From an uncultured Eubacteriales bacterium (lineage in GTDB: Bacteria > Bacillota > Clostridia > Christensenellales > Aristaeellaceae), in NCBI GenBank assembly GCA_900315315.1, contig OMYT01000003.1:48958-112957 (forward strand): a DNA stretch of 64,000 bases, read 5' to 3'. The position numbers and the translations under genes were made by a program. Positions within the stretch are counted from its first letter, which is position 1, and every line of letters starts with the position of its first letter. The notes beneath the pieces were generated by a model. The model did not search any database, was not told the origin of the DNA, and saw only the letters and a program-made list of their open reading frames with translations. Of this stretch, positions 15,998-35,102 are shown piece by piece.

Positions 15998-16006
15998 AAG
16001 TTAGCA

Positions 16007-16022
16007 ATCGGATTATACCGAT
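16007..16022 (+). promoter_or_regulatory. Leader hairpin of choline-binding paralogue 3
   Basis: ATCGG-ATTATA-CCGAT, identical to the element at 11918, lies just ahead of the GAAAGGGGAAA ribosome-binding site of paralogue 3. Confidence 0.55.
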
Positions 16023-16047
16023 TATGAAAGAAAGGGGAAAATATATC

Positions 16048-19955: not shown

Positions 19956-21212
19956 ATGGACAGGAAGCTCACCGTGGGGCAGAATACGGTTTACAACACC
20001 ATCGGCAGCTGCTTCTATCTGGCGTGCCAGTGGCTGATTACGGTGCTGGTGATCCGGCTGGGGTCGGTGGAATACGGCGGGATTCTGACGCTGGCGATGT
20101 CGGTGACGAACGTGCTGTTCACGCTGGGAACATTCGGAATCCGGAGCTACCAGGTGAGCGACTACGAGAAGAAATACACAACGGGCGAATATGTGACGAC
20201 GAGGCTGTTCCTGTGCGCATGCTCGCTGGTCATCTGCATCGGGTACAGCTTCCTGTTCTCCGGGCAGACGACATACGTGGCAGCGTGCATCAGCGCGTAT
20301 ATGCTGTTCCGGCTGGGAGAGGCGCTGAGCGACGAGAACCAGGCGATCCAGCAGGTCGGCGGGCGGATGGACTATGTATTCTGGTCCTTCGTGATGCGAG
20401 GGATCCTGCTGGTGGGGTCTTTTGCGGCGACGCTGGTGCTGACGAAGGACCTGCTGACGACGTTCGCGGTGATGGCGGCGGCGACGGGGGCGGTGGTACT
20501 GCTGTACGAGCTGCCGAAGAGCCGGAAGCTGGACCCGTTCAGCTGGAAATTCAACATTCAGCGGACGTGGAAGCTAATCACGGAAAACATCCCGCTGATG
20601 ACGAACTCCTTCCTGATGGCGTTCTGCATCACGATTCCGCGGACGGCGCTGGACAATCTGTGGGGCCACTACGAGATGGGGATCTACGGATCCATCGCGG
20701 CGCCGGCGGCGATCGTGCAGAGCGCGGTGCTGTGGCTGTACATGCCCTCGCTGACGCAGTTCGCGGAATACTACCACGAGCGGCAGGACGAGGCATTCCA
20801 CAGGCTGAACCGGAAGATGATCCTGCTGATTACCGGGGCGGCGGCGGTGATCCTGATCGGCGCGGCGGTGCTCGGGAAGTGGGGGCTGAACCTGCTGTTC
20901 GGGGCGGAAGTCGCGGCGAGAAGCGATCTGCTGATCCCGACGCTGGGGACGACGGTGCTGATCGCGGCGGAATACTACGTGAGCGCGCTGCTGACGGTGG
21001 TGCGGAACCTGAAGGCGATCCTGATTTCCAACGTCGCGGCGGTGGCGGTTACAATCGCGATATCAAATCTGCTGATCCGGCCGTACGGGGCGATGGGGGT
21101 CAACTATGTGATCTACATCTCGATGGCGGTGACGCTGGTGATCCAGGGAATCGCGCTGGGGAAGAATTTCCGGGAGCATTTCGGAAAGGGGAAAGAGGAT
21201 GCCGGAGTATAA
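19956..21212 (+). CDS. Polysaccharide/teichoic-acid flippase (MOP superfamily)
   Basis: This 418-residue integral membrane protein with about 12 hydrophobic segments belongs to the Wzx/MATE-like MOP exporter superfamily, which flips lipid-linked glycans across the membrane. The N-terminus (NTVYNTIGSCFYLACQWLITVLVIRLGSVEYGG) is typical. It overlaps licD by 14 bases and is therefore translationally coupled to it. The same pairing (tacF with licD1/licD2) is known in the pneumococcal lic2 locus, where TacF exports phosphocholine-bearing teichoic acid chains. A TacF-like role is an inference from this context; the sequence alone supports only the superfamily. Confidence 0.88.
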   Translation: MDRKLTVGQNTVYNTIGSCFYLACQWLITVLVIRLGSVEYGGILTLAMSVTNVLFTLGTFGIRSYQVSDYEKKYTTGEYVTTRLFLCACSLVICIGYSFLFSGQTTYVAACISAYMLFRLGEALSDENQAIQQVGGRMDYVFWSFVMRGILLVGSFAATLVLTKDLLTTFAVMAAATGAVVLLYELPKSRKLDPFSWKFNIQRTWKLITENIPLMTNSFLMAFCITIPRTALDNLWGHYEMGIYGSIAAPAAIVQSAVLWLYMPSLTQFAEYYHERQDEAFHRLNRKMILLITGAAAVILIGAAVLGKWGLNLLFGAEVAARSDLLIPTLGTTVLIAAEYYVSALLTVVRNLKAILISNVAAVAVTIAISNLLIRPYGAMGVNYVIYISMAVTLVIQGIALGKNFREHFGKGKEDAGV

Positions 21213-22047
21213 AGAGGAGGATCTGAAGCGGATCTGGAAGACGGAAATCGAGATCTACCAGGCGATCGCGAAGATCTGCGAGGATCACGGGCTGCGGTAC
21301 TACGCGGCATACGGCACGGTGATCGGGGCGCTGCGGCACAAGGGGTTCATCCCGTGGGACGACGACATGGACGTCTGCATGCCGCGGAGGGACTACGAGG
21401 CCTTTCTGGGATACGCGGAGAAGGAACTACCGGAGAAGATGGGGATCTACGGGATCGGGTACACGAAGGGGTTCGTGATGCCGATGGTGAAGATCGTGAA
21501 CAAGCGGACAGTATTCGTGGAGGAATCGGACCAGGACAAGAAATATGTATGCGGGATCTATGTGGATGTGTTCCCGATGGACGCGGCGCCGCCGACGGAG
21601 GAGCTGAAAAGAAAGCACCGGAAGCGGATTATGCGGCTGGGGCGGGCGATGGTGCTGGCGGAATATCCGCACGGGAAGCTGCCGGAGGGAATGAATCCGG
21701 TGGTGAAGGCCGGAGTTTCCGCCGGATGCGCGGTGATTCATGCAGGGCTGAGGATTTTCGGATTTACGGTTGAAAAGCTGAATAAGGCTTTTGAGAAGGA
21801 AGCACGGAAATATGAGACGGAAAATGTTGAGGAATATGAATTAACGGCTTATTTTTCCGAGTGGGAGACAGAGTATACGAAGGCGGAGGTTATATTTCCG
21901 ACGAAGGAGATGGCTTTTGAAGATATAACCATAAAGGTACCTAAAGAGGCAGATCGGTATATTCGGGATATGTATGGGGATTGGACAGTGATTCCGCCTC
22001 CGGAAAAGAGGCATAATCACTGTCCGGTAAAACTGAAATTTGAGTGA
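21199..22047 (+). CDS. licD: LicD-family phosphotransferase (phosphocholine transfer to glycan)
   Basis: LicD enzymes transfer phosphocholine from CDP-choline to sugars of teichoic acid or lipopolysaccharide. The 282-residue protein shows the family's nucleotidyltransferase-like core: YYAAYGTVIGALRHKGFIPWDDDMDVCMPRRDYEAF (about residues 34-69), including the GT-hG...HxGFIPWDDDxD signature and its catalytic acidic residues. It ends with a WTVIPPPEKRHNH segment common in the family. Translation is coupled to the upstream flippase. CDP-choline would be supplied by the LicC enzymes encoded at 27.4-31.6 kb. The acceptor sugar is unknown. Confidence 0.92.
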   Translation: MPEYKEEDLKRIWKTEIEIYQAIAKICEDHGLRYYAAYGTVIGALRHKGFIPWDDDMDVCMPRRDYEAFLGYAEKELPEKMGIYGIGYTKGFVMPMVKIVNKRTVFVEESDQDKKYVCGIYVDVFPMDAAPPTEELKRKHRKRIMRLGRAMVLAEYPHGKLPEGMNPVVKAGVSAGCAVIHAGLRIFGFTVEKLNKAFEKEARKYETENVEEYELTAYFSEWETEYTKAEVIFPTKEMAFEDITIKVPKEADRYIRDMYGDWTVIPPPEKRHNHCPVKLKFE

Positions 22048-22076
22048 TTGACTTTTCATAATTTGTTTGTTATTAT
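22048..22076 (+). promoter_or_regulatory. Promoter of the BCCT transporter operon
   Basis: TTGACT (22048-22053) and TATTAT (22071-22076) are separated by 17 bases. The hexamers begin right after the licD stop codon. Confidence 0.72.
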
Positions 22077-22082
22077 CTGTTT

Positions 22083-22116
22083 GTTCATGAAAATAAGAAA
22101 ACTGAGAAACGTGAAC
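22083..22116 (+). promoter_or_regulatory. Putative operator similar to that of the lic operon
   Basis: GTTCATGAAA (22083-22092) lies six bases after the -10 box. A second partial site, AAACGTGAAC, follows at 22107-22116. The licCA promoter has GTTCATGAAC seven bases after its -10 box and GTTCACGAAC 26 bases further on. The matched positions suggest one regulator acting at both promoters. No binding evidence exists. Confidence 0.5.
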
Positions 22117-22130
22117 GAGGAGGAATATCA

Positions 22131-23759
22131 ATGGCTAAGCGGTATGATATCGTAACCATTGTGACCAGCCTGGTTTTGATGGCCCTGCTGGTGGTGGGGA
22201 CGATCTTTGCCGGGGACAGCGTGATCACGGGACTGAACGAGGCGAAAAACTGGACGATCTACAACTTCGGATGGGTATTCATCCTGGTGGTTGCGGGGAT
22301 CCTGTTCTATGTGCTGTGGCTGGCTTTCTCGAAATACGGGAGCATCCGGATGGGGCGGACGAAGCCGCAGTTCGGATGGTTCGGGTACGCGGCAATGATT
22401 TTCTGCGCGGCGATGGGCAGCTGCATGATCTACTGGCCTTCGGTGGAATGGGCGGAGTACATCTGCTGGACGGATGTATGGCCCTTCGGGTGGGGCGTGA
22501 AGGAGATGGCGGACAACGCGCTGAGCTACAGCTTTTTCCACTGGGGAATTCCGGCATGGGCGGTATACGCGGCAGGGATCGTGCCGATCGGATACCGGTA
22601 CTTCGTGCGGAAAAAGCCGGGGCTGACCATCCAGGGCGGATGCGAAGGTGTTTTCGGAGAGAAGGCGGTGCAGGGGCCGCTGGGTACGATCATCAACATT
22701 ATCTTCATCGTTGGGATCCTGGGCGGGCTGACGATCACCTACGGGACGGGGATCCCGATGCTGGCGAACTTCCTGCACGCGGTGATCGGGACGCCGGAGA
22801 ACTTCACGGTGAACGTGATCCTGATTGCGGTGCTGACAGGGGCGTTTACGTGGAGCGCGCTGAGCGGCATCGAAAAGGGCATCCTGAACCTGAGCCGGCT
22901 GTGCATTATCTTCTGCGGGGTGATGCTGGCACTGATCCTGGTGCTGGGCAACACAGGGTACATCATCAACAGCACGACCCAGGCGCTGGGCGGGCAATTC
23001 CAGAACTTCTTCGCGATGCTTTTCAACGTCGGGCCGGGGCAGACCGAGTACGGCACGAACTTTGCGATGGAATGGACGGTGTTCTACTGGGCCTGGTGGC
23101 TGGGGCTGGCGCCGGTAATGTGGATCTTTATCGCAAAATGCTCGAAGGGGCGGACGATCCGCAGCATCATCCTGACGGTGATCGGCGCCGGATTCGTGGC
23201 GGATGTGCTGTTCTTCGGGGTGATCTCCGGAAACGGGCTGAGCCAGTACGCGGGATTCGACTGGAGCAGGCTGGGGAGCGGGAACACGCCGCTGGACGCG
23301 TTCTACAATACATGGAACGAATTCGCGTTTATCAGCGACACGCTGACGGCGACGGTGAGCCTGCCGAAGGTTGTGATCGGGGTGTGGTTCATCGGGTGCT
23401 TTATCCTGCTGATCACGACGATGGACTCCTCGGCGTATACGATGGCCGCGGCGACGGAGCGGAAAGTCGGCGTGAACAGCGACCCAAAGAAGCGGCTGCG
23501 GTTCTTCTGGGCGCTGCTGCTGAGCGTGGCGCCGCTGTGCATCCTGGGGAGCGGGGCCGGGACGAAGAGCTGCACAGCGGTGGTGGTGCTGACGGCGGTG
23601 CCGGTGATGATCCTGGTAATCTGCGCGATTATCGGATCCACAAGATGGATCCTGCAGGACTTCAGCAAGATGACGAGGCAGCAGATCGAAAACTACTTTG
23701 AGACGGACGAGGAGCGGGAAGAGCGCCTGGCCGCGGTGAAAGCGATACCGGAGGAATAA
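22131..23759 (+). CDS. BCCT-family transporter (choline/betaine/carnitine type)
   Basis: This 542-residue integral membrane protein has about 12 membrane segments. It is a member of the betaine/choline/carnitine transporter family, whose members import quaternary ammonium compounds with Na+ or H+, or by exchange. The family signature with aromatic residues near the substrate path is visible: FYWAWWLGLAPVMWIF followed by KCSKGRTIRS (about residues 322-345). A glycine-rich segment (TYGTGIPMLANF) corresponds to the unwound helix of this fold. The position between licD and the choline kinase/cytidylyltransferase operon makes choline a likely substrate, but it heads an operon of 2-oxoacid oxidoreductase genes, so a betaine or carnitine-like nutrient is also possible. 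Confidence 0.9.
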   Translation: MAKRYDIVTIVTSLVLMALLVVGTIFAGDSVITGLNEAKNWTIYNFGWVFILVVAGILFYVLWLAFSKYGSIRMGRTKPQFGWFGYAAMIFCAAMGSCMIYWPSVEWAEYICWTDVWPFGWGVKEMADNALSYSFFHWGIPAWAVYAAGIVPIGYRYFVRKKPGLTIQGGCEGVFGEKAVQGPLGTIINIIFIVGILGGLTITYGTGIPMLANFLHAVIGTPENFTVNVILIAVLTGAFTWSALSGIEKGILNLSRLCIIFCGVMLALILVLGNTGYIINSTTQALGGQFQNFFAMLFNVGPGQTEYGTNFAMEWTVFYWAWWLGLAPVMWIFIAKCSKGRTIRSIILTVIGAGFVADVLFFGVISGNGLSQYAGFDWSRLGSGNTPLDAFYNTWNEFAFISDTLTATVSLPKVVIGVWFIGCFILLITTMDSSAYTMAAATERKVGVNSDPKKRLRFFWALLLSVAPLCILGSGAGTKSCTAVVVLTAVPVMILVICAIIGSTRWILQDFSKMTRQQIENYFETDEEREERLAAVKAIPEE

Positions 23760-23763
23760 AAAA

Positions 23764-24798
23764 ATGTCCAGGAAGTTCATCAACGGAAACGAAGCCTTTG
23801 CCTATGGGGCGCTGGCGGCCGGCCTGAGCTTTTACGCCGGATACCCGATCACGCCGTCGACGGACGTATACGAGCTGCTGGAGCGGGAGCATGAGCAATA
23901 CGGCGTGGAGTTTGTGCACGCGAGCTCGGAAATCTCCGCGATCAACATGGTGATGGGCGCGAGCATCGCCGGCGCCCGGGCGCTGACGGTGACCTCCGGG
24001 TGCGGATTTTCCCTGATGCAGGAAGGGATCAGCTATATGGCGGCAGACTTCGTGCCGTGTGTGATCCTGAATGTGATGCGGGAAGGCGCCGGGCTGGGAG
24101 ACATCCCGAGAAGCCAGGCGGATTACGACCAGATGACCAAAGGCGGGGGGAACGGAGACTACCACGCGATTGTGCTGGCGTGCAGCTCCATCCGGGACTG
24201 CATGGAGATGCCGAGAATAGCCTACGGACTGGCGGAGAAATACCGGAACCCGGTGATCGTGACCTACGACAGCGACATCGCGCACACAAGGGAGAACGTC
24301 GATATTCCGCTGCAGGGGAAGGCAGATATCGACCGGCTGCCCTATACGCTGCGCGGAAACAGCAGCGGAACACCCAAGCTGGTCCAGAATGTCAATTATC
24401 ACGATCCGGACTTCACGCGGACTCTGAGCCGGAAGTATGAAGAGATCGAACGGGAGGAACAGCGCTGGGAAGCGTATGAAACGGAAGACGCAGAGATCGT
24501 ACTGGTGGCGTACTCCATCTGCGCATGTGTGTGCAGGGATGCGGTGCGGCGGGCCCGGGAGGCGGGGATGAAGGTCGGCCTGATTGTGCCGGTGACGCTA
24601 TACCCCTTTCCGGAGAAAGCGTTTGGGGAGCTCAGAAACTGCCGGAAGATCATTACGGTGGAGCTGAGCATCCTGAAGCAGATGCGCAGGGACGTAGAAT
24701 ATGCGACGCGGTTCCGCTACGAATACGGATCCGTGAACAGCCTGTCCGCCTGCCCGACGGTTGCCGATATTCTGGAAATCGTGAGGGAGGAGGAGTGA
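23764..24798 (+). CDS. korA: 2-oxoacid:ferredoxin oxidoreductase, alpha subunit
   Basis: The 344-residue subunit carries the pyrimidine-binding domain of thiamine-diphosphate-dependent 2-oxoacid:ferredoxin oxidoreductases, which turn a 2-oxoacid plus CoA into acyl-CoA, CO2 and reduced ferredoxin. The N-terminal GNEAFAYGALAAGLSFYAGYPITPST is diagnostic of the KorA/VorA branch. HASSEISAINMVMGASIAGARALTVTSG follows, and a C-terminal transketolase-like domain begins near residue 235. It starts four bases after the transporter stop codon. The beta and gamma subunits follow directly; the small ferredoxin-like delta subunit found in some relatives is absent. The symbol reflects family resemblance; branched-chain or aromatic 2-oxoacids are equally possible substrates. 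Confidence 0.9.
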   Translation: MSRKFINGNEAFAYGALAAGLSFYAGYPITPSTDVYELLEREHEQYGVEFVHASSEISAINMVMGASIAGARALTVTSGCGFSLMQEGISYMAADFVPCVILNVMREGAGLGDIPRSQADYDQMTKGGGNGDYHAIVLACSSIRDCMEMPRIAYGLAEKYRNPVIVTYDSDIAHTRENVDIPLQGKADIDRLPYTLRGNSSGTPKLVQNVNYHDPDFTRTLSRKYEEIEREEQRWEAYETEDAEIVLVAYSICACVCRDAVRRAREAGMKVGLIVPVTLYPFPEKAFGELRNCRKIITVELSILKQMRRDVEYATRFRYEYGSVNSLSACPTVADILEIVREEE

Positions 24799-24802
24799 GC
24801 CG

Positions 24803-25486
24803 ATGTACACGATGCTTTGTGCCGGATGCGGACACCGGACGGCGATGACACTGCTGGACGAGCTGATCGGGAAAAAGAGGCTGAAGGAAAAGACGATCCT
24901 GGCGCTGGACGTGGCCTGCTGCTCCCTGCTGATCGACGAAGTGGAGTACGACGCGGTGATGTGCGCCCACGGACGGGTGCTGGACGTGGCGAAGGGATAC
25001 CAGAGCGTACGGAAAGACAAATGCGTGATCTCCTACATGGGAGACGGGGCGGCGTACTCCATCGGGATTGAGGAAATGATCCACGCGGCTCGGCGGAACG
25101 ACCACGCGTTCGTGGTGGTGATCAACAACGGGCTGTACTCCATGACCGGGGGGCAGATTGCCCCGACGTACGTGGGGGACGCGGCGGAGGACGACCAGGA
25201 CGCGGGATTCCGGGCGGAAAAGGTGCTGAGCGGGTTCCCGATCCGATATCTGGCGCGGGCGGCGCTGACCGACGGGCCGAACATCGAGCGGGCCAGGAAA
25301 TATCTGGAGACCGCGATGGACGGGTATCTGAGCGGGAGCGGGTTTCACATGGTGGAGCTGCTGAGCCCGTGCCCGACAAACTACAAGCTGAACCCGAAGG
25401 ACATGGGGGAGATGATCAACGGGCAGATGACCCGGCATTATCCCCTGGGAGAATTCGTGAAAGAAGGAGAGCGGAACCCATGCTGA
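24803..25486 (+). CDS. korB: 2-oxoacid:ferredoxin oxidoreductase, beta subunit
   Basis: This 227-residue subunit binds the thiamine diphosphate cofactor and the iron-sulfur cluster. It shows MLCAGCGHRTAMTLLDELI at the N-terminus (Cys pair and Gly-His). The cofactor-binding stretch SYMGDGAAYSIGIEEMIHAARRN...VVINNGLYSMTGGQ lies at about 75-115. Family members often have a further acidic residue directly after GDG; here it is Ala. The length is slightly short for the family (usually 240-290). The gene is preceded by GGGAGGAGGAG and followed, with a 7-base overlap, by the gamma subunit gene. Confidence 0.9.
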   Translation: MYTMLCAGCGHRTAMTLLDELIGKKRLKEKTILALDVACCSLLIDEVEYDAVMCAHGRVLDVAKGYQSVRKDKCVISYMGDGAAYSIGIEEMIHAARRNDHAFVVVINNGLYSMTGGQIAPTYVGDAAEDDQDAGFRAEKVLSGFPIRYLARAALTDGPNIERARKYLETAMDGYLSGSGFHMVELLSPCPTNYKLNPKDMGEMINGQMTRHYPLGEFVKEGERNPC

Positions 25487-25950
25487 AGGAGATCTTTATC
25501 ATCGGGATCGGCGGGCAGGGCGCGCTGACGCTGGGGGAACTGCTTTGCCACGCCGGGAACCGGAAGGGTTATACCGTTTCCCTGTATCCCTTCTACGGAT
25601 CACAGATACGGGGCGGGGAAGCCGGATGCGTGGTGAAGATGGAGACGGAAGGCGGGGAGATCGCCAACCCGACGATCAACGAACCGGATGATTTCCTGAT
25701 CCTGAGCGGGAAGTTTTTTGAGAAGTATAAGCGATTCAGCAGGGAAGGGGCGGGGGTTTATACGGCCGCGGAGGGGAGTAAAGATAAGAATCTGAACCTG
25801 ATGCTGCTGAAAGAGTATGTTCAGGAGACAGGAGTTTTCAGCGATGAAGAGATTGTGGAAGCGATAAAGACCAAATTCCGCAGGGAAGAGATTTATCAGA
25901 AGAAAATTGAAGCTTATCTGAGTGCTGAGCAGAAGGAGCAGGGTTGTTGA
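25480..25950 (+). CDS. korC: 2-oxoacid:ferredoxin oxidoreductase, gamma subunit
   Basis: The 156-residue subunit has the hallmark IIGIGGQGALTLGELLCHAG at the N-terminus and the YGSQIRGGEAGCVVK motif near 39-53. Both are typical of the CoA-handling gamma domain. The ATG at 25480 overlaps the end of korB and starts at the conserved beta strand; longer upstream in-frame readings fall inside korB. The base composition shifts to a higher A+T content in the last third of the gene, as it also does near the ends of licD and rfbB. Confidence 0.9.
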   Translation: MLKEIFIIGIGGQGALTLGELLCHAGNRKGYTVSLYPFYGSQIRGGEAGCVVKMETEGGEIANPTINEPDDFLILSGKFFEKYKRFSREGAGVYTAAEGSKDKNLNLMLLKEYVQETGVFSDEEIVEAIKTKFRREEIYQKKIEAYLSAEQKEQGC

Positions 25951-25952
25951 AG

Positions 25953-27329
25953 ATGAATTATCAGGCTTTGTTTATTCCGAAGACGATTGCCGTGATCGGG
26001 GCGAATGAATCCGAGGGGTTCGGGGGAGCGGCGTGCAGGAACCTTCTGGAGTATATTGACGATCCGGAACGGATTTATTTCGTGAACCCGAAGCGGGACA
26101 TGCTGCACGGAAAAAAGTGCTACCACAGCATTTCCGAGGTGCCGGCGGACGTCGAGATGGCCGTGATTGCCACCAACAAAAAGACCGTGATCCCGATCCT
26201 GAAGGAAGGAAGCGGGAAGGGACTGAAGGCGGCGGTGATCTTCGCCAGCGGATTCAGCGAGACGGGCCGGGAAGAAGATATCGAACTGGAAAAGGAACTG
26301 GTTCGGACGGCGGAGGAACTGGATATCACGATTCTCGGGCCGAACTGCGCCGGCTTTTCCAACTTCCGGGACGGAATCAATCCGTTTGCCTTCCTGAGCG
26401 AGAAACGGGACCGGAAGGGATGCATCGGAATCATTTCCCAGAGCGGGATGATCAGCCTGTCCCTGAACGACAACCAGTATACACGGTTTTCCTACAACAT
26501 CAGCTGCGGCAACAGCAGCCTGCTGACAATGCCGGACCTGATCCCGTTTATGGCGGACGACGAGGAAACGCGGGTTATCGGCCTGTATATTGACGGGGTG
26601 AAGGATCTGGACGCGTTTGAGCAGGCGGTGGCCTACGCCAAAGAAAAGGGCATGCGCATCGCGCTGATCAAATCCGGGTCCAACGAGATGACGCGGCTGC
26701 TGACGAAAAACCATACAGGCAGCGTGGAAAGCTTCTCCGACGAAAGGTTCAACGCGCTGCTGAAGCAATACGGCATTACCCGGTGCCGGGATCTGGAGGA
26801 ACTGATCTACACGCTGTGCATCTTTGCCTACTGCGAACGGCTGCCGAAGAGCAACCGGGTGGCGGCGATCACGCTGTCCGGCGGCGAGGCGGCGCTGATG
26901 GGCGAAACGGCGGAAGGATTTGACATGGCGTTTCCGCCGTTCGACGAAGGGCTGACGAAATACCTGGAGGAGCGGCTGCCGGCGTATGCCCATGTCTCGA
27001 ACCCGCTGGACATGACGGCTGTGCTGTCCTACGACGCGGAGATCCTGGCGGACGCGCTGATCCATGTGATGCAGCAAAAGAAGATCGACGCGATCCTGTT
27101 TGGGTACACGCTGCTGTACCATATTGACGACCCGTGCATCTACTACCTGATTGAAGCGCTGAAAATCGTACAAAAAAAGCTGGGGGAGGAAACCAAGCCT
27201 TTGTTCCTTGTTTCCTTCATGTCCAACACCCGGAACCAGGACGCCATTGACCGGCTGCGGGAGCTCGGCGTGATCTGCCTTCCCACGCCGTACTACGCGT
27301 ACAGGGTTCTTACAGGGATCCTGGGCTGA
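25953..27329 (+). CDS. ADP-forming acyl-CoA synthetase, alpha (CoA-binding, phosphohistidine) subunit
   Basis: The 458-residue protein resembles the alpha subunit of ADP-forming acetyl-CoA synthetases, which convert acyl-CoA, ADP and phosphate to acid, CoA and ATP. The CoA-binding Rossmann domain (TIAVIGANESEGFGG, 11-25) is followed by succinyl-CoA-ligase-like domains with GPNCAGF (129-135) and ISQSGM (161-166). The KNHTGS motif places the phospho-acceptor His at 254. The ATP-grasp beta subunit is not encoded here, so a partner elsewhere is needed. The start may instead be a TTG at 25944 or 25947, which lies closer to the AGGAG. In the operon it would use the acyl-CoA made by KorABC for ATP synthesis. 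Confidence 0.85.
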   Translation: MNYQALFIPKTIAVIGANESEGFGGAACRNLLEYIDDPERIYFVNPKRDMLHGKKCYHSISEVPADVEMAVIATNKKTVIPILKEGSGKGLKAAVIFASGFSETGREEDIELEKELVRTAEELDITILGPNCAGFSNFRDGINPFAFLSEKRDRKGCIGIISQSGMISLSLNDNQYTRFSYNISCGNSSLLTMPDLIPFMADDEETRVIGLYIDGVKDLDAFEQAVAYAKEKGMRIALIKSGSNEMTRLLTKNHTGSVESFSDERFNALLKQYGITRCRDLEELIYTLCIFAYCERLPKSNRVAAITLSGGEAALMGETAEGFDMAFPPFDEGLTKYLEERLPAYAHVSNPLDMTAVLSYDAEILADALIHVMQQKKIDAILFGYTLLYHIDDPCIYYLIEALKIVQKKLGEETKPLFLVSFMSNTRNQDAIDRLRELGVICLPTPYYAYRVLTGILG

Positions 27330-27346
27330 GGGACGGCGAAAAACCA

Positions 27347-27376
27347 TTGACAAGTCTGCAAACAAAATGATATGAT
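27347..27376 (+). promoter_or_regulatory. Promoter of the licCA operon
   Basis: TTGACA (27347-27352) and TATGAT (27371-27376) are separated by 18 bases. The tandem palindromes at 27384-27419 follow directly. Confidence 0.78.
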
Positions 27377-27379
27377 GCC

Positions 27380-27423
27380 CGCGTGTTCATGAACGATAAA
27401 AAATCCATGTTCACGAACACGCG
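27380..27423 (+). promoter_or_regulatory. Putative operator: two GTTC-NN-GAAC palindromes inside a long inverted repeat
   Basis: GTTCATGAAC (27384-27393) is a perfect 10-bp palindrome over the expected transcription start. GTTCACGAAC (27410-27419) is a near-copy, with centres 26 bases apart. Together with flanking bases they form a larger inverted repeat (CGCGTGTTCATGAA against TTCACGAACACGCG) with one mismatch. This is a good candidate site for a repressor, possibly the winged-helix domain of the protein encoded immediately downstream. Confidence 0.6.
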
Positions 27424-27446
27424 TATTATTAATCAGGAGAGACTCC

Positions 27447-29240
27447 ATGACCATTCAGGAGCAGGATATTCTGCAGTATCTGCTGGAACACAATATCAAC
27501 CAGCAGCGGGATGTTGCCGCAGGGCTTGACATATCCCTGGGCATCGCGAACAAAGCGTTGCGGACACTGATGAAAGACGGCTGGATCGACGAAAACTATT
27601 TCCCGACAGAAAAGGCGCGGGCACTGGAGCGAAAGTGCCGGCCGAAGCGGGCGATCATCCTCGCCGCGGGCTATGGCATGCGGATGATCCCGATCAACCG
27701 GGAAATGCCCAAGGGCCTGATCGAGATCAACGGGGAACCGATTATTGAACATACGATCCGGCAGATCCAAGAGGCCGGCATCCGGGAGATTATCCTGGTG
27801 ACCGGGTTTATGAAGGAACGGTATGAATACCTGACGGACCGGTACGGCGTGACGCCGGTATACTGCCGGGACTATCCGACGAAAAACAACCTCTACACCC
27901 TGGCCTGCGCGGCGGAATATCTGGAGGACGCATACATCGTTCCCTGCGACGTGTATTTTTATAACTCCCCTTTCCGGAGTACGGAGCTGTATTCCTGGTA
28001 CATGCTGAGCACGGAGCAGATCGACGAGGGAGAGATCCGGGCAACGAGAAGCCGGGAGATTGTGGAAGTGGAAGCCGGAGAGGCGGGGAACCGGATCCTC
28101 GGGCTGAGCTACCTGACAGCGGAAGACGCCCGCAGCGCCAGGGCGAGGCTGGCTGAGCTGACCGCGGAACGGAAGAACAGCGGTGCATTCTGGGAAGCGA
28201 TCATCACGGAGAAAAAGCATATGCTGATTCCCGCGAGGATGATTCCGCCCACGGATGCGGTGGAGATCAACACATATGAGCAGCTGCGGGAGATCGAATA
28301 CTACAATCCACAGCTCCAGAACGACGTGATCGACGTGATCCGGAAGGTATTCCAGGTCCGGTTTGAGGAAATCAGGGATATCACGGTGGTCAAGAAGGGA
28401 CTGACCAACCGGTCCTTTATTTTCACGGTCCACGGGACACGGTACGTGATGCGCATCCCCGGGGAAGGAACGGAGAACCTGGTGGACCGGGCCGCAGAGG
28501 GACAGGTGTATGAGCTGCTGAAGGGGAAGAACATCTGCGACGACAATATCTATTTCGACAGCGAGAGCGGATACAAGATCGCGAAGTTTCTGGAGAACTC
28601 GCGGGAGAGCAATTACCAGGATCCGGAAGACGTGAAACGCTGCATGCAGCTGATTCGAAAGGTGCATGAAGCAAAACTGCAGACGCCGGCGAAGCTGGAC
28701 CTGTGGGAGATCATTGACTACTACGAGAGCCTGTGGAACGGAGAGGCGTCCATATACCGGGACTATGAACAGGTGAAGCAGGCCGCGATGAACATGCGCC
28801 CCTTTGTGGAGACCCACGCACTGGAAGCGGTGCTGACCCACGGGGACTGCAACCCCGGGAACTTCCTGTTTTCTCCGGCGGACGACGGCGGGGAGCGGGT
28901 GAGCCTGATTGACTGGGAATACGCCGCAATGCACGATCCGCTGGTGGACCTTTCCGGCTATACGATTTATTATCCGAACGACAACCCGAAAGCGTATGCT
29001 GACCAGGTCATCGACGCGTACTATCCGGAGGGATGCACGAAGGAGATCCGGCTGCTGGTATACTGCTACTGTGCGCTGTGGGCTCTGTACACGAGCAACT
29101 GGTGCGAATACAAGATGCGGCTGGGCGTGGAGCTGGGCGACTTTGCCATCACCCAATACCGGTATGTGAAAACCTTTGTACGGATTTTTGAGGAAGAATA
29201 CGCCGCGTATACGGCTGAAGGAGAGAAGGGAAACCGATGA
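27447..29240 (+). CDS. Winged-helix / phosphocholine cytidylyltransferase / choline kinase fusion (LicC-LicA type)
   Basis: The 597-residue protein joins three parts. Residues 1-63 form a winged-helix DNA-binding-like domain (MTIQEQDILQYLLEHNINQQ...GLDISLGIANKALRTLMKDGWI). Residues 66-290 form a nucleotidyltransferase like LicC (RAIILAAGYGMRMIPINREMPKGLIEINGEP), which would make CDP-choline from CTP and phosphocholine. Residues 300-597 form a choline-kinase-like domain with the phosphotransferase motif HGDCNPGN (465-472) and IDWEYA (488-493). One polypeptide would therefore phosphorylate choline and activate it. The winged helix suggests an additional regulatory role or a structural relic. 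The gene has its own promoter and operator-like palindromes and overlaps the next gene by four bases. Confidence 0.88.
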   Translation: MTIQEQDILQYLLEHNINQQRDVAAGLDISLGIANKALRTLMKDGWIDENYFPTEKARALERKCRPKRAIILAAGYGMRMIPINREMPKGLIEINGEPIIEHTIRQIQEAGIREIILVTGFMKERYEYLTDRYGVTPVYCRDYPTKNNLYTLACAAEYLEDAYIVPCDVYFYNSPFRSTELYSWYMLSTEQIDEGEIRATRSREIVEVEAGEAGNRILGLSYLTAEDARSARARLAELTAERKNSGAFWEAIITEKKHMLIPARMIPPTDAVEINTYEQLREIEYYNPQLQNDVIDVIRKVFQVRFEEIRDITVVKKGLTNRSFIFTVHGTRYVMRIPGEGTENLVDRAAEGQVYELLKGKNICDDNIYFDSESGYKIAKFLENSRESNYQDPEDVKRCMQLIRKVHEAKLQTPAKLDLWEIIDYYESLWNGEASIYRDYEQVKQAAMNMRPFVETHALEAVLTHGDCNPGNFLFSPADDGGERVSLIDWEYAAMHDPLVDLSGYTIYYPNDNPKAYADQVIDAYYPEGCTKEIRLLVYCYCALWALYTSNWCEYKMRLGVELGDFAITQYRYVKTFVRIFEEEYAAYTAEGEKGNR

Positions 29241-29407
29241 GCGAACAGGAAAAGAGCCTGGAAGAAAAAGTGGAGGACGCCATCAGCGAAATGGAAGCGC
29301 CGGACTATGTGTTTCCGAAGCGTTTTACGCGGACGGACTACATTATTGTGGCGGTGTGCGCTGTGATCTGCGCCGCGGCGCTGATCGCAGGCGCCTATAT
29401 CGCATAA
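29237..29407 (+). CDS. 56-residue single-span membrane protein of the lic operon
   Basis: This short gene overlaps the stop of the upstream fusion gene as ATGA and ends 14 bases before the permease gene, so it is clearly placed for translation in the operon. The peptide has an acidic cytoplasmic-looking N-terminus (MSEQEKSLEEKVEDAISEME), a short basic stretch (FPKRFTR) and one C-terminal membrane helix (YIIVAVCAVICAAALIAGAYIA). Small one-helix proteins often accompany transporters as accessory subunits; that is my inference here. I do not recognise a family. Confidence 0.72.
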   Translation: MSEQEKSLEEKVEDAISEMEAPDYVFPKRFTRTDYIIVAVCAVICAAALIAGAYIA

Positions 29408-29421
29408 GGGGGGTTACCGAT

Positions 29422-30861
29422 ATGAGCAAAAATTCCGCGAAAGAACGGGCCATCGACCAGGAGGCCGAGTTCGGCATTGTGCCGGTGACGACGAAGTCAA
29501 AGCAATACCGGTTTTCCGACGCGTTCCTGTTTATGAGCAGCTACGCCATTGCGACCTGGAACTATTCCCAGGGGGCGTACATTTCCGGACTGGTCGGATT
29601 CAAACAGATGCTGATTACCACCTTCTTCGGCACAATGCTTGCCCTGCTGATCATCGAACTGCCAGTGATCCTGGCGACCCGCTACGGGATTGACATCTGG
29701 ATCTGGTTCAAGAGCATTCTGGGACATACCGGTGTGAAGATCGCTACGATCGCAATCGTGATTCTGAATTTTACCTGGCACGGGGTGGTGGCAGAGCTGT
29801 TCGCCTCCTCGTTTGAGAACCTGCTTGGGCTTGCGAATATTCATCTGCCTCCGTTCTGCCACATCATTCTGGCCCTGATCTGCATTTTCGGCGGCGGATA
29901 TATCGCGATGAAGGGGATTGCGGTACTGAATATCACGACTAAAGTGCTGACGCCCCTGCTGATCCTGGTGGGCTGCGTGGTCATCTATGTCGGGTTTTCC
30001 TCCGCTCCGATTGAAGCTATCTGGAACTATGTTCCCGAAGGCGTCAAAGCCAGCGATGCGGACGCGGCTATCGGCTATATTCTGGCGACAGACGCGATGA
30101 TCGCCTACAGTCTGGCCTGGTTCGGCGGAATGGCGGGCGTGCCGCGGCTGACCTACACCGAGCGCTCCGGTTTCTGGTGCGGCCCGGTGGGGTCCGGCAT
30201 TGTCGGGACATTCTTTGTGATTATCGGCGCGGTGATGGCGATCGCGATGCAATATGTGACGGGGGAAATGGTGACGGATCCCACGATCATGATGGCGACG
30301 CTGTCCGTGCCGCCGATGGCACTATGTTCGCTGCTGCTGGTCGGCTTTGCCAACATCGGCACCCAGGCGACCGGTTCCTACCTCTATGCGCTGATGCTGA
30401 AAGCTTCCTTCAAGAAAGCAAAGTTCTCCGTGCTGGTGTTGGCGCTGTGCCTGTACGTGAGCGTGCTGGCAATCTGGGGACAGATCCTGGACTACATCGG
30501 CGCGATCCTTTCCCTGGCGGCGTGTATGTTCGCACCGCTGGCGGCGCTGCTGTTCACGGACTTCTTCTTTGTCCGGAAGCAAAAAATCTCCCTGCGCGCG
30601 GCCTTTGAGATCAAAGGAAACAAGACTTACCGGTATTTCCACGGGTTTAACCCGGTCGGCATCGGCAGCCTGGCGATCGGATTCGTGACGCTGCTGCTGG
30701 TGATGGATCCCGTGACCCAGGAAGTGCGGATTCCCTTCCTGTTCCAGTTTACCCCGTGCGTGTGCTCCTTTGTGGCGACCATGGCCGCCTACCTGCTGCT
30801 GAACTGTATTCCGGCCGTGCGGAGGTACAACCTGCGCGACCGGAAAGAGGTTACGATCTGA
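29422..30861 (+). CDS. NCS1-family (cytosine/purine permease-like) transporter
   Basis: The 479-residue protein has about 12 membrane helices and the overall pattern of the nucleobase:cation symporter-1 family. The N-terminal cytoplasmic stretch EAEFGIVPVTTKSKQYRFSDAF leads into FMSSYAIATWNYSQGAYISGLVGF. The ATG at 29422 follows AAGGGGGG at a suitable distance. Characterised NCS1 members carry nucleobases, hydantoins or thiamine. Inside a choline-kinase/cytidylyltransferase operon, where LicB-type choline permeases usually sit, this one may carry choline or a related amine. The substrate is not readable from the sequence. Confidence 0.85.
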   Translation: MSKNSAKERAIDQEAEFGIVPVTTKSKQYRFSDAFLFMSSYAIATWNYSQGAYISGLVGFKQMLITTFFGTMLALLIIELPVILATRYGIDIWIWFKSILGHTGVKIATIAIVILNFTWHGVVAELFASSFENLLGLANIHLPPFCHIILALICIFGGGYIAMKGIAVLNITTKVLTPLLILVGCVVIYVGFSSAPIEAIWNYVPEGVKASDADAAIGYILATDAMIAYSLAWFGGMAGVPRLTYTERSGFWCGPVGSGIVGTFFVIIGAVMAIAMQYVTGEMVTDPTIMMATLSVPPMALCSLLLVGFANIGTQATGSYLYALMLKASFKKAKFSVLVLALCLYVSVLAIWGQILDYIGAILSLAACMFAPLAALLFTDFFFVRKQKISLRAAFEIKGNKTYRYFHGFNPVGIGSLAIGFVTLLLVMDPVTQEVRIPFLFQFTPCVCSFVATMAAYLLLNCIPAVRRYNLRDRKEVTI

Positions 30862-30884
30862 ACAGAGTGAACGGAGGGATTCCC

Positions 30885-31604
30885 GTGTACCGGATTGAAA
30901 GAGCAATCATCATGGCGGCCGGAAAGGGCAGCCGCATGAGCGAACTGACAGAAACCACGCCGAAACCCATGGTACGGGTGAACGGAAAACGGATGATCGA
31001 CACGACAATTGAGGCGCTGCTGAGCCTGGGGGTCAAAGAGATTTACATCGTGGTTGGGTATCTGAAGGAGCGGTTTTCGGAAGTGAAGGCGGACTATCCG
31101 ACAGTGCAGCTGGTGGAGAATCCCTGCTATGAGACGGAGGAGAATATCAGCTCTATTTACCGGGTACGGGACCTGTTGGAGAACGCGATGATCATCGAAG
31201 GGGACCAGTACTTCTTCAGCCCGGAGCCGCTGAACCCGGAATATGAACATACGGAATACAACTGCTTCCGGGTTGACAGCCCGACAAGGGACTGGATTGT
31301 GGACGCGGACGAGACCGGCAGGATTACCGGATATCACGACAGAGGCGGGGAGAAAGGCTGGCTGTGCTACGGGGTCAGCCGATGGACGCCGGAAGACGGG
31401 CGAAAGCTGAAACAGTATATCGAACTGGAGTACGAGGAAAAGCAGAACCGCCATATCCACTGGGATTATGTTCCCTTTGACATCCACAAAGACCAGTTTT
31501 CACTGTATGTCCGGGAAACGCCGGCGGATCAGCGGGTGGAACTGGACAGCGTGGCGGAACTCGCCCGGATTGACCCATCGTACAAAAAATTATTAAATGT
31601 GTGA
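30885..31604 (+). CDS. licC: Phosphocholine cytidylyltransferase, stand-alone LicC
   Basis: This 239-residue nucleotidyltransferase makes CDP-choline from CTP and phosphocholine. The N-terminal motif AAGKGSRMSELTETTPKPMVRVNGK is the sugar-phosphate-type nucleotidyltransferase signature. The C-terminal ending (SLYVRETPADQRVELDSVAELARID) closely follows the pattern of pneumococcal LicC (VYVEEL...YEIDSVQDYRKL). Translation begins at a GTG (30885) with GGAGGG six bases upstream; reading further upstream runs into the permease gene. The operon thus encodes two LicC domains, one fused and one separate. They may differ in substrate, for instance ethanolamine phosphate against choline phosphate. Confidence 0.9.
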   Translation: MYRIERAIIMAAGKGSRMSELTETTPKPMVRVNGKRMIDTTIEALLSLGVKEIYIVVGYLKERFSEVKADYPTVQLVENPCYETEENISSIYRVRDLLENAMIIEGDQYFFSPEPLNPEYEHTEYNCFRVDSPTRDWIVDADETGRITGYHDRGGEKGWLCYGVSRWTPEDGRKLKQYIELEYEEKQNRHIHWDYVPFDIHKDQFSLYVRETPADQRVELDSVAELARIDPSYKKLLNV

Positions 31605-31720: not shown

Positions 31721-33373
31721 ATGAGAATTCAGAAAAGACTGATCGGCCTGCTGCTGGTGCTGGCGATTGCCTTCGGCCTCGTTGGCATGACTGCTGCATC
31801 CGCTGAAGCGTTTGCAGGCGAGATTAAGGACGGTATCCTGGTCAAGTATACGGGTGACAAATACGCACTTACCGCTGACGATTTCCCGGAATCGGTTACG
31901 GTGATTGGTTCATCCGCGTTCAAAGGCCTTCCGATGACTTCGATTGTGCTCCCGAACCGGGTGACTTCAATCGGCGCATCGGCGTTCGAGGACTGTGATA
32001 AGCTGACAGCGATCACGCTGCCGAACCAACTGAAGACGATTCAGGAAAGAACCTTCAACAACTGCGTGGAACTGCTGAATATCGTGATTCCGGACACGGT
32101 TACATCGATCGAAGCGAAAGCCTTCTCCAACTGCGTCAAGCTGCAGACGGTCAAAGGCCCGGCCAAGAAAGTGGACAGCATTAACCATCCTGTGAATCCC
32201 ACTGACAACAACTATGAAGCTGTGACCGGATACCTGACCAACGTCGGGACCGACGCCTTCTATAACTGCTCCCGCGTGCATATCTGGTGCGTGAAGGGCG
32301 GCGCGCTGGAGACCTACTGCACGACCAACAACATCAACCACACTTCCCTGGCGCCTATCGTCGACGTGGTCACGATCGCGAAAGCCCAGTACACCATGGT
32401 AAAGGGCGGAGAGAAGACCATTACCGTGACGATCAAGCCTGAAGTTTCCGCCAAGGAAGCACTGGCCTGGACCAGCACGAGCGAGCTGATCATGGCCGTA
32501 AACCAGGAGGGCGTGATCAAAGGCGTGGCTCCCGGGGTCGTGACAATCACCGTCCGCGGCGATGCCTACATCGTCGGCAAGGATGGCGCCATGGACGCCA
32601 CGGTAGGCGTGGTGCTGGATCCGACGAAGAGCTGGCAGGAGTGGGGCGGCAGATGGTACTACTGCACCGGTACCAGTGTTGACTCCTTCGCGGTAGGCTG
32701 GACGCAGATCGGCGGAGTATGGTACTACTTCGACGAGTTCGGCCGGATGGCGTCCGGATGGCAGCTGATTGACAAAAAATGGTATTACTTCAATGCTCAG
32801 GGTATCATGCAGACCAGCTGGCAGAAAATTGACGGCAACTGGTATTACTTCGGAACTGACGGCGCGATGCGCGTTGACTGGCAGAAGATTAGCAAGAAGT
32901 GGTATTACTTCGGAACCAACGGTGTGATGCAGACCGGATGGGTCATGCCTGTGGGCGACACCCATTGGTACTACCTGCACGAGCCGGAAGGCTACATGAT
33001 GACCAACTGGCAGCTGATCGGCGGCGTATGGTACTACTTCAACCCGAAGAACGGCGCAATGGCCACTGGCTTTACCCCGATCGGCAAGGAGACCTACTTT
33101 ATGAACGCCCTGGGCATCTATCAGCTCGGCTGGCAGTATCTGCAGAACAGCTGGTACTTCTTCGGACCCGACGGTGTCATGCGGACCGGATGGCAGCAGA
33201 TCGGCGGCGTATGGTACTACTTCAACGCGGACGGCCGGATGATCGCTGCTGACTGGCTGAAGTATGGCAATAACTGGTACTACTTCGACGGGAACGGCGC
33301 CATGGTGACCGGTACGCGCGTGATCCTGGGCGTGACCTACACGTTCGATGCCAATGGTGTGTGGATCAAGTAA
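31721..33373 (+). CDS. Exported leucine-rich-repeat protein with Ig-like domain and choline-binding repeats
   Basis: The 550-residue protein has a signal peptide (MRIQKRLIGLLLVLAIAFGLVGMTAASAEA). BspA-type leucine-rich repeats follow, from about 45 to 200 (SVTVIGSSAFKGLPMTSIVLPNRVTSIGASAFEDC and onward). A Big2-type Ig-like domain lies near 215-305 (QYTMVKGGEKTITVTIKPEV). About eleven choline-binding-type repeats run from 310 to the end, with the regular GWQxIxxxWYYFxxxGxM pattern. The ATG at 31721 follows GGGAGGAA. Such proteins are usually adhesins or surface receptors anchored on phosphocholine. Transcription from the strong promoter at 31636 is separate from the lic operon. Confidence 0.9.
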   Translation: MRIQKRLIGLLLVLAIAFGLVGMTAASAEAFAGEIKDGILVKYTGDKYALTADDFPESVTVIGSSAFKGLPMTSIVLPNRVTSIGASAFEDCDKLTAITLPNQLKTIQERTFNNCVELLNIVIPDTVTSIEAKAFSNCVKLQTVKGPAKKVDSINHPVNPTDNNYEAVTGYLTNVGTDAFYNCSRVHIWCVKGGALETYCTTNNINHTSLAPIVDVVTIAKAQYTMVKGGEKTITVTIKPEVSAKEALAWTSTSELIMAVNQEGVIKGVAPGVVTITVRGDAYIVGKDGAMDATVGVVLDPTKSWQEWGGRWYYCTGTSVDSFAVGWTQIGGVWYYFDEFGRMASGWQLIDKKWYYFNAQGIMQTSWQKIDGNWYYFGTDGAMRVDWQKISKKWYYFGTNGVMQTGWVMPVGDTHWYYLHEPEGYMMTNWQLIGGVWYYFNPKNGAMATGFTPIGKETYFMNALGIYQLGWQYLQNSWYFFGPDGVMRTGWQQIGGVWYYFNADGRMIAADWLKYGNNWYYFDGNGAMVTGTRVILGVTYTFDANGVWIK

Positions 33374-34535: not shown

Positions 34536-35102
34536 TCAGATCTGACCGAAAACGAAATTGCAGTCACTGTCATCCAGGAGCGGGGAGGTCGTGTCTTTCT
34601 GACTCAGGAGGCTGTCCTCCACTTCACCCCAATTGACGCCGATGGAGGGATCGTTATAACGGATGCCACGATCGCATTCCTTACTGTAGAGATTATCCAC
34701 CTTGTAGCAGAACTCCACATCATCAGTGAGGGTTTTGAAACCATGTCCAAAGCCGCGGGGAATCATGAGCATGCGCTTGTTTTCCGCACTGAGTTCCACG
34801 GCGACCCACTGCTTATAGGTGGGACTGCCTTTCCGCAGATCCACAGCCACATCCAGGACAGCACCCCGGGTTACGCGGACCAGCTTGGCCTGCGCCATGG
34901 GGGCATTCTGGAAATGAATGCCGCGGAGGATGCCTTTCTGGGCGCTGTAGCTCTGGTTATCCTGCACAAAATTGTACTGCAGGCCCATTTCCTCAAAGTT
35001 TCGGGTGCTCCATGTTTCCATGAAATAACCCCGCTGGTCTCCAAAGACCTGCGGCTCGATGATATATACTCCGGGCAATTTGGTTTCGATCTTTTTCATC
35101 AA
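34536..35102 (-). CDS. rfbC: dTDP-4-dehydrorhamnose 3,5-epimerase
   Basis: This cupin enzyme epimerises dTDP-4-dehydro-6-deoxyglucose at C3 and C5 in dTDP-L-rhamnose synthesis. The 188-residue protein is full length. It shows [21 protein letters not shown], the catalytic-region segment GILRGIHFQ, and [11 protein letters not shown] with its conserved His residues. Its start overlaps the rfbA stop by four bases (ATGA), so the two genes are translated together. The first enzyme of the branch after RfbA, RfbB, is encoded at 3.1 kb on the other strand, and RfbD is not in the window. Confidence 0.96.

What the first reader, a model, noticed from the sequence alone, without database searches (positions are those of the whole stretch)
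19956..31604. A complete phosphocholine decoration island with six choline-binding surface proteins
The sequence shows a flippase and LicD, a BCCT transporter, a choline kinase domain, two LicC cytidylyltransferases and a second permease, bracketed by six exported proteins with choline-binding-type repeats. In pneumococcus the lic1/lic2 genes do this with teichoic acids. Here the genes are arranged differently, with fused enzymes, unusual permeases and metabolic genes. I infer that this organism decorates a surface glycan with phosphocholine and uses it as a docking site for its own large surface proteins.
Basis: partly seen in the sequence, partly recalled or inferred. Interest (0 to 1): 0.75.

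Follow-up and report, generated by a model that had tools for sequence, protein, structure and literature searches.

The report
Surface-decoration island with anchored proteins
A probable gut Clostridia bacterium carries an intact gene set for loading a choline-like group onto its surface sugars, flanked by six surface proteins with repeats that normally grip that group; the design is known, but this copy has an altered substrate pocket, an unusual permease and an unexplained metabolic insert.

Summary
In detail: flippase, LicD, BCCT, a 2-oxoacid oxidoreductase/CoA-ligase-alpha block, an HTH-LicC-LicA fusion, a 56-aa membrane ORF, an NCS1-like permease and a second LicC, flanked by six proteins with choline-binding-type repeats. 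LicCA-LicC2-BCCT is a common cassette in gut Firmicutes: of 80 named LicCA loci (the best 80 of a capped scan) 68 hold a second LicC, 61 a BCCT, and 17 repeat proteins with paired tryptophans. The same genome has a second, canonical cassette beside such proteins. A phosphocholine-type decoration with docking proteins is well supported and known in kind.

New here: the kinase has lost choline-cage residues (W251T, Y268F) kept in 79 of 79 comparable named relatives; LicC2 has His at position 190 (0 of 66 relatives); the BCCT is of another type. The NCS1 permease recurs beside LicCA in two other families. The oxidoreductase/ACD-alpha block occurs in none of the 80 loci, and no ATP-grasp partner was found in the 89%-complete genome. 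Choline as the substrate of this particular cassette is therefore unproven; a related amino-alcohol is possible.

The parts
7719..11609 (+). CBP1: secreted 1296-aa protein, long N-terminal region plus C-terminal choline-binding-type repeats
   Evidence: Pfam Choline_bind_1 1.3e-39, Choline_bind_3 2.7e-28; 10 of 20 hairpin matches with both Trp
11959..15810 (+). CBP2: paralogue of CBP1 (54% identity), 1283 aa
16048..19857 (+). CBP3: paralogue, 1269 aa; N-terminal region modelled as all-beta hairpin array
   Evidence: model pLDDT 79; first Foldseek hits Rhs/teneurin shells, local similarity only
19956..21212 (+). Flippase of the polysaccharide-export (MOP) type, possible TacF counterpart
   Evidence: PF01943 28.3 bits against cut-off 28.2; no solved relative at E<=0.01
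21199..22047 (+). LicD-type phosphotransferase
   Evidence: PF04991 3.7e-43; one of 8 LicD matches in the genome
22131..23759 (+). BCCT transporter, not of the type usual in LicCA cassettes
   Evidence: PF02028 3.7e-106; TM8 motif WAWWLGL against WAYWMVW-type in relatives; 0 of 355 other class genomes at E<=1e-90
23764..24798 (+). VorB-like 2-oxoacid:ferredoxin oxidoreductase alpha subunit
   Evidence: PRK07119 354.6 bits, below cut-off 399
24803..25486 (+). PorB-like beta subunit; conserved cysteines and thiamine-diphosphate motif kept
25480..25950 (+). PorC-like gamma subunit, about 25 aa internally shorter than two relatives
25953..27329 (+). Acyl-CoA synthetase (NDP-forming) alpha part, catalytic His kept, no beta/ATP-grasp part (a TTG start at 25944 is also possible)
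   Evidence: TIGR02717 2.4e-84, below cut-off; no ATP-grasp_5 over cut-off and no ATP-grasp_2 in the genome
27447..29240 (+). HTH-LicC-LicA fusion with changed choline pocket (residues 469 N, 549 T, 566 F)
29237..29407 (+). 56-aa single-pass membrane ORF, likely partner of the NCS1-like permease
   Evidence: overlaps the LicCA stop by 4 bases; homologue (49%) before NCS1 in L144, and small ORFs of 51-70 aa in the same place in L142, L143, L145, L147; none listed in L146 and L148
29422..30861 (+). NCS1-like permease, likely substrate importer of the cassette
   Evidence: PF02133 1.1e-6; directly beside LicCA in L147 and L148
30867..31604 (+). LicC2, stand-alone cytidylyltransferase, with E and H at LicC positions 105 and 190 (GTG start inferred)
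31721..33373 (+). CBP4: LRR_5, Big_2 and choline-binding-type repeats, 550 aa
33479..34396 (+). CBP5: 305 aa, choline-binding-type repeats
36050..39151 (-). CBP6: LRR_5 plus choline-binding-type repeats, about 1033 aa (start inferred)
22048..22076 (+). Promoter-like site before BCCT (10 of 12, TG before second hexamer)
   Evidence: overall count not above shuffles (12 against 8.5, sd 2.7)
27347..27376 (+). Promoter-like site before LicCA (11 of 12, TG before second hexamer)

Best explanation
This is a lic-type surface-decoration locus. NCS1 with its small partner (and perhaps BCCT) imports an amino-alcohol; the LicA domain phosphorylates it; LicC2 (and/or the LicC domain) makes the CDP-activated form; LicD transfers the phospho-amino-alcohol to a lipid-linked surface glycan; the flippase exports it. 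The flanking proteins are secreted and held on the decorated glycan by their repeats. By spacing the island reads as three units: flippase-LicD; BCCT-VorB-PorB-PorC-ACDalpha; LicCA-small protein-NCS1-LicC2. The gene families and the repeat type are shown; import, activation, transfer and docking are inferred from the families. That the group is exactly choline is likely for the genome's second, canonical cassette and uncertain for this one, whose pocket is altered.
For: Family and solved-structure matches. The LicCA model (pLDDT 91) has LicA with choline (TM on target 0.85) and LicC (0.87) among its first three Foldseek hits. Residues equivalent to T29, D176, N181, D194, E196 are kept. Of 80 named loci found with LicCA, 68 hold LicC2 and 61 a BCCT. 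Repeat proteins with paired Trp occur in 17 of 80 of these loci and in 0 of 9 loci without LicCA (about 172 kb, not matched for taxon). In 150 family genomes LicCA and PF19127 co-occur: 3 of 6 LicCA genomes against 3 of 144 others over cut-off, Fisher p 6.9e-4; own genome left out, p 0.0087 (the two calls are taken to have drawn the same genomes). Neighbouring genes are sugar-nucleotide, glycosyltransferase and sulfatase-type genes.
Against: Kinase positions 178, 251 and 268 are N, T, F instead of V, W, Y, and LicC2 position 190 is H. LicCA here has the longest terminal branch of 88 sequences, which could mean drift. G108 has paired-Trp repeats (9 of 12 hairpin matches) but no LicCA and no choline kinase over cut-off; G036 has LicCA without repeat matches. 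Four loci with divergent LicCA (L044, L045 partial, L147, L148) hold no paired-Trp repeat protein. No surface chemistry can be tested here.
Confidence: 0.72

Rival explanations
1. The window cassette is a diverged copy that activates a group other than choline (for example ethanolamine or a partly methylated form), so the genome writes two different groups on its surface: choline from the cassette on contig C130 and another from this one.
For: W251 and Y268 of the choline cage are kept in 79 of 79 comparable named relatives but are T and F here; TGG to ACG needs two substitutions. LicC2 has H190 (0 of 66) and E105 (2 of 66); Glu at the position matching LicC D105 is what the smaller-substrate enzyme PntC of Treponema denticola has (PMC6697681, passages), and the NCS1-linked LicC2 of L148 also has E105. 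Transporters differ from canonical cassettes. The other own cassette keeps the usual residues.
Against: Pocket changes alone do not show a new substrate. N at 178 also occurs in 9 of 80 named relatives and in G120; Ser at 268 occurs in three divergent fusions (G002, L147, L148); Glu213, the charge partner of choline in LicA, is absent from nearly all relatives too (Tyr in 78 of 80), so the pneumococcal map is not strict. W254, Y197, W136 and W191 are kept. The BCCT keeps the TM4 motif W-x4-W-x2-Y.
Confidence: 0.33
2. The window copy is decaying: relaxed selection after a second cassette arrived.
For: Longest terminal branch; gamma subunit about 25 aa short; no ferredoxin subunit in the block and no ATP-grasp partner found.
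Against: The genes of 19956-31604 are uninterrupted frames with tight spacing or overlaps inside each unit; catalytic residues are kept; promoter-like sites stand in the two larger gaps.
Confidence: 0.15
3. The repeats bind another ligand (glucan or peptidoglycan sugars) and the linkage to lic genes is incidental.
For: The repeat family also holds glucan-binding members (PMC4929436, passages); weak TIGR04035 hits; the G108 exception.
Against: Paired Trp in 52 of 100 hairpin matches of the six proteins, against 0 of 71 in one stretch each of three LicCA-less family genomes (G018, G089, G128). For the three proteins tested (CBP1, CBP4, CBP5) the best NCBIfam matches are PspA/PspC models, below their cut-offs.
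Confidence: 0.12

Closest known systems
Pneumococcal lic1/lic2 with TacF and choline-binding proteins
   Same: Kinase, cytidylyltransferase, LicD, flippase, and surface proteins held by choline-binding repeats
   Different: Kinase and cytidylyltransferase fused with an HTH; second LicC; BCCT and NCS1 permeases in place of LicB; metabolic block; altered pocket
LicCA-LicC2-BCCT cassette of gut Firmicutes (named loci, such as Faecalibacterium prausnitzii, Blautia caecimuris, Dorea, Streptococcus porci)
   Same: HTH-LicC-LicA fusion, LicC2, nearby repeat proteins in some
   Different: Best identity 47%; NCS1 and the small ORF sit between LicCA and LicC2; none of 80 loci has a match to the Vor/ACD block or NCS1 at 1e-5
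Treponema denticola LicCA fusion (recalled; of PMC8590670 only the listing was seen)
   Same: Kinase and cytidylyltransferase in one protein
   Different: Not compared by sequence here
Clostridium saccharoperbutylacetonicum choline teichoic acid and 66 choline-binding proteins (PMC3593318, passages)
   Same: Choline in a clostridial cell wall with many choline-binding proteins
   Different: No gene-level comparison made here
Amino-acid fermentation-type operon with ferredoxin, VorB, PorB, PorC, ACD (L152, L153)
   Same: Gene order VorB-PorB-PorC-ACD, 27-46% identity
   Different: Window block lacks the ferredoxin, a neighbouring aminotransferase and the ACD beta part
PntC phosphonate cytidylyltransferase (6pd1/6pd2)
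   Same: LicC-like; Glu at the LicC-105 position as in window LicC2
   Different: Weaker match than LicC (1.5e-10 against 6.7e-31); phosphonate genes were not searched for

Membership tests
Lic-type phosphocholine decoration pathway | Choline-kinase fold with catalytic residues | tested here: met
Lic-type phosphocholine decoration pathway | Choline cage of LicA (V178, Y197, W251, W254, Y268 per PMC4364537, passages) | tested here: not met
   Window N, Y, T, W, F; own second copy V, Y, W, W, Y
Lic-type phosphocholine decoration pathway | LicC cytidylyltransferase with choline-site residues | tested here: inconclusive
   LicC2 keeps D107, W136, W191, D192, E216; position 105 is E and 190 is H. 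Assignment of W136 and Y190 to the choline site is recalled; the passages seen name D192, D105, E216, R129 and an unnumbered aromatic box
Lic-type phosphocholine decoration pathway | LicD transferase | tested here: met
   PF04991 3.7e-43
Lic-type phosphocholine decoration pathway | Choline permease | tested here: inconclusive
   BCCT and NCS1-like present; substrate not derivable, both own BCCTs are nearest to solved DddT
Lic-type phosphocholine decoration pathway | Phosphocholine on the surface | not testable with these tools
   needs chemistry
Canonical LicCA-LicC2-BCCT cassette | LicC2 directly after LicCA, then cassette-type BCCT | tested here: not met
   NCS1 and small ORF intervene; BCCT upstream and of other type
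Choline-binding proteins | Repeats over Pfam cut-off with two Trp per repeat | tested here: met
Choline-binding proteins | Export signal | tested here: inconclusive
   N-terminal hydrophobic signal-like stretches seen by eye; no predictor run
Choline-binding proteins | Binding to choline | not testable with these tools
   needs resin binding
Vor-ACD fermentation-type operon | alpha, beta, gamma subunits with cofactor motifs | tested here: met
Vor-ACD fermentation-type operon | Ferredoxin subunit and ACD beta (ATP-grasp) | tested here: not met
   absent in the block; ATP-grasp_5 none over cut-off, ATP-grasp_2 none in the 89%-complete genome
TacF-type flippase | Specific relationship to TacF | tested here: inconclusive
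   only PF01943 at cut-off; no solved relative at E<=0.01

The most novel reading that the evidence does not exclude
One bacterium runs two parallel lic codes: a canonical phosphocholine cassette and this re-engineered one, which activates a different (smaller or less methylated) amino-alcohol taken up by an NCS1-type permease with a one-helix partner, with a ferredoxin-linked oxoacid/CoA block tied to the supply or disposal of the substrate; its surface proteins may read one code or both.
Probability: 0.28. Interest if true: 0.7.

Novelty: new variant of a known kind. Interest (0 to 1): 0.5.

Why it matters
Phosphocholine decoration is mostly discussed for pathogens; here its genes are frequent, and in part linked to docking proteins, in gut Firmicutes. 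In the listings of my searches (titles and abstract starts) I saw no paper on this cassette, and the main text of the survey PMC10434233 has no occurrence of 'Firmicutes', 'Lachnospir' or 'fusion'. A paralogue with a changed pocket beside a canonical copy makes it testable whether bacteria diversify the lic group beyond choline. It also points to an NCS1-type permease as a LicB substitute.

Tried and rejected
DMSP import as the role of the BCCT: the window BCCT is nearest to solved DddT (3.4e-74), but so is the canonical cassette's BCCT (4.2e-76), so this is uninformative.

Phosphonate decoration (PntC): PntC is a weaker match than LicC; phosphonate genes were not searched for.

The LicC domain of the fusion as evidence for an altered substrate: rejected, because it departs from pneumococcal LicC in nearly all relatives too (P105 in 76 of 80, E192 in 77 of 80).

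Contamination or chimera: no sign seen. The island lies inside a 113-kb contig with surface-polysaccharide genes on both sides, but reads were not available.

Closer orthologues of the window cassette: none found.

A first count of controls for the repeat linkage listed 11 loci; two of them (L044 and L045) hold divergent or partial LicCA and were therefore taken out, leaving 9.
Full report
What is there. The window lies in contig C111 of a 4.26-Mb draft genome (197 contigs, 89.24% complete, 3.81% contaminated). Between 19956 and 31604 the plus strand carries a flippase, LicD, BCCT, VorB-, PorB- and PorC-like subunits, an ACD-alpha protein, a 597-aa HTH-LicC-LicA fusion, a 56-aa membrane ORF, an NCS1-like permease and LicC2. 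Three repeat proteins lie left and three right. Flanking genes are glycosyltransferases, an acyltransferase and (by eye) rmlB on the left, and an rmlC- and an rmlA-type gene and a sulfatase-type protein on the right. The expected target is therefore a surface glycan (inference).

Units. Gaps between genes are -14 (flippase/LicD), 83 (LicD/BCCT), then 4, 4, -7, -7 through ACD-alpha, 117 to LicCA, then -4, 14, 5 to LicC2. The two strongest plus-strand promoter-like matches (10 and 11 of 12) lie in the two large gaps. The total number of promoter-like sites is not above shuffles (12 against 8.5, sd 2.7), so the three-unit reading is an inference. It places BCCT with the metabolic block and NCS1 with LicCA.

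The enzymes are of the lic type. The nearest solved relatives of the fusion are pneumococcal LicC and LicA, and of LicC2 pneumococcal LicC. A model of the fusion (30-sequence alignment, pLDDT 91) has LicA with choline (4r7b), LicA (4r78) and LicC (1jyk) as its first three Foldseek hits.

The common cassette. Of the 80, 68 contain a LicC2 match, 61 a BCCT and 14 a LicD (some loci are cut by contig ends); none contains a match to VorB, PorB, PorC, ACD-alpha or NCS1 at 1e-5. The N-terminal HTH region aligns in 75 of 80. The own genome has a second cassette of this form on C130 (LicCA 43%, LicC2 44%, BCCT 24%), between repeat proteins and near three LicD genes, a flippase and two IspD-type cytidylyltransferases. 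The two cassettes hold its only choline-kinase-family matches over cut-off.

The changed pocket. LicA binds choline with Tyr197, Trp251, Trp254, Tyr268 and Val178; Glu213 meets the charge; Thr29 and Asp176 hold the hydroxyl (PMC4364537, passages). In an alignment of 88 fusions the window protein has Y, T, W, F, N at 197, 251, 254, 268, 178. The 80 named relatives have W251 in 79 and Y268 in 79 (one gapped at both), and V178 in 68 (N 9, I 2, A 1). The C130 copy has Y, W, W, Y, V. The divergent fusions G002, L147 and L148 have W251 but S268 and Y178. T29, D176, N181, D194 and E196 are kept in the window protein; Glu213 is Tyr there and in 78 of 80, so the pneumococcal map is not strict. Codon 549 is ACG, two changes from TGG. 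LicC2 has E at LicC position 105 (relatives: D 52, S 11, E 2, C 1 of 66) and H at 190 (Y 55, L 11 of 66); two short LicC2 fragments of the 68 were dropped. In PMC6697681 (passages) LicC D105 and D192 correspond to larger Glu residues in the smaller-substrate enzyme Tde-PntC. The window fusion has the longest terminal branch of 88 sequences, 1.127 against 0.574 for C130. So its substrate may differ from choline, or it drifts; sequence alone cannot tell.

Permeases. The window BCCT differs from the 64 of 65 other aligned cassette BCCTs that have letters there in the TM8 motif, and has no close homologue in 355 other class genomes at E<=1e-90. The NCS1-like protein has none in 296 other order genomes at 1e-30 and 7 in 390 other class genomes at 1e-25. 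Of these 7, two (L147, L148) sit directly beside a LicCA (28% identity), one of them also near rmlB- and rmlA-like genes. In four (L142, L143, L145, L146) NCS1 is part of an 886-909-aa protein; of these L142 and L143 were scanned and show a C-terminal Acyltransferase match (L143 below cut-off). In L144 a separate gene with a sub-cut-off Acyltransferase match follows. A small ORF is listed just before NCS1 in 5 of the 7. NCS1 is thus a recurrent lic companion and the best candidate importer (inference).

The metabolic block. ACD-alpha has 4 matches in 247 other order genomes at 1e-30 (29-35% identity) and 3 in 390 other class genomes at 1e-60. The closest (46%, G540) lies beside a HisC-like aminotransferase (by eye), a small ferredoxin-like ORF (by eye), VorB, PorB and PorC, with a 698-aa ACD that holds both parts; G711 is similar. 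The window block keeps this order and its catalytic motifs but lacks the ferredoxin, about 25 aa of PorC and the ACD beta part. The genome has no ATP-grasp_5 match over cut-off and no ATP-grasp_2 match, with about 11% of it missing. Its purpose here is unknown; my guess is handling of a product or precursor of the imported compound.

The repeat proteins. Choline sites use two aromatic residues, usually Trp, of one repeat and often a Tyr of the next (PMC4929436, passages). By a simple motif count the six proteins have 10 of 20, 10 of 24, 10 of 23, 10 of 12, 5 of 10 and 7 of 11 hairpin matches with both Trp; C130 proteins 14 of 27, 3 of 14 and 8 of 22; the own protein on C110 7 of 10; two G120 proteins 2 of 4 and 2 of 6; one G076 protein 3 of 6; LicCA-less G018 0 of 28, G089 0 of 35, G128 0 of 8; but LicCA-less G108 9 of 12. 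Of 80 LicCA loci 17 carry at least one frame with three or more such repeats (31 frames; 16 of the 48 loci of 18 kb or more); 9 loci without LicCA (about 172 kb) carry none, and neither do four loci with divergent or partial LicCA. PF19127 is found in 7 of 150 family genomes, 6 of them over cut-off, with 44 stretches in the own genome, all on C111, C130 and C110 (43 of 98 candidates scored there). Co-occurrence with LicCA: 3 of 6 against 3 of 144 over cut-off, p 6.9e-4 (p 0.0087 without the own genome); of the six LicCA genomes G002 and G068 are divergent, and G068 is a partial match at a contig end. None of the six other same-genus genomes has a PF19127 match or a full-length LicCA. CBP1-3 (51-54% identical) have long N-terminal regions without a Pfam match over cut-off, modelled (for CBP3, on an alignment of the three) as beta-hairpin arrays; Foldseek ranks Rhs and teneurin shells first (2.1e-20), with TM about 0.1, so the likeness is local.

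Verdict.

Noticed in passing
L039/L040 (own genome, contig C130): A second, canonical LicCA-LicC2-BCCT cassette with repeat proteins, three LicD genes, a flippase and two IspD-type cytidylyltransferases.
   Followed up: yes
L142:7916-10576, L143:9524-12193, L145:9639-12299, L146:9706-12435, L144:9524-12307: NCS1-like permease in an 886-909-aa protein whose C-terminal part looks like an acyltransferase (Pfam over cut-off in L142, below it in L143; L145 and L146 not scanned), or, in L144, followed by a similar separate gene; possibly import and acylation of a glycerophosphodiester such as glycerophosphocholine (speculation).
   Followed up: partly
window 7719-19857: Three tandem paralogous ~1280-aa surface proteins with beta-hairpin (locally Rhs/YD-like) regions and a choline-binding-type tail.
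   Followed up: partly
window 36050-39151 (minus): CBP6 shows, by eye, a transglutaminase-like Cys/His/Asp pattern and repeated Cys-x2-Cys motifs that Pfam did not report at its cut-offs.
   Followed up: no
LicCA loci, for example L063, L066, L095, L112, L115: Some loci have a LicC2 of lower identity (31-34%) followed by a further LicA-like hit (26-28%); a LicC2 subgroup has Leu at position 190 (11 of 66): another cassette variant.
   Followed up: no
LicC domain of the fusion in the 80 named loci: The fused LicC domain has a gap at W136 in 78 of 80 and has P105 (76 of 80) and E192 (77 of 80), while stand-alone LicC2 mostly keeps the pneumococcal pattern; the two cytidylyltransferases may have different jobs.
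   Followed up: partly
window 3135-4154 and 34536-35983; L147: An rmlB-like gene and rmlA/rmlC-type genes flank the island on opposite sides; the NCS1-LicCA pair of L147 also sits near rmlB- and rmlA-like genes (78% and 70% identical to the window's).
   Followed up: no
L156 (G108): A 626-aa frame with paired-Trp repeats in a genome without LicCA or a choline kinase over cut-off: an exception to the linkage.
   Followed up: partly
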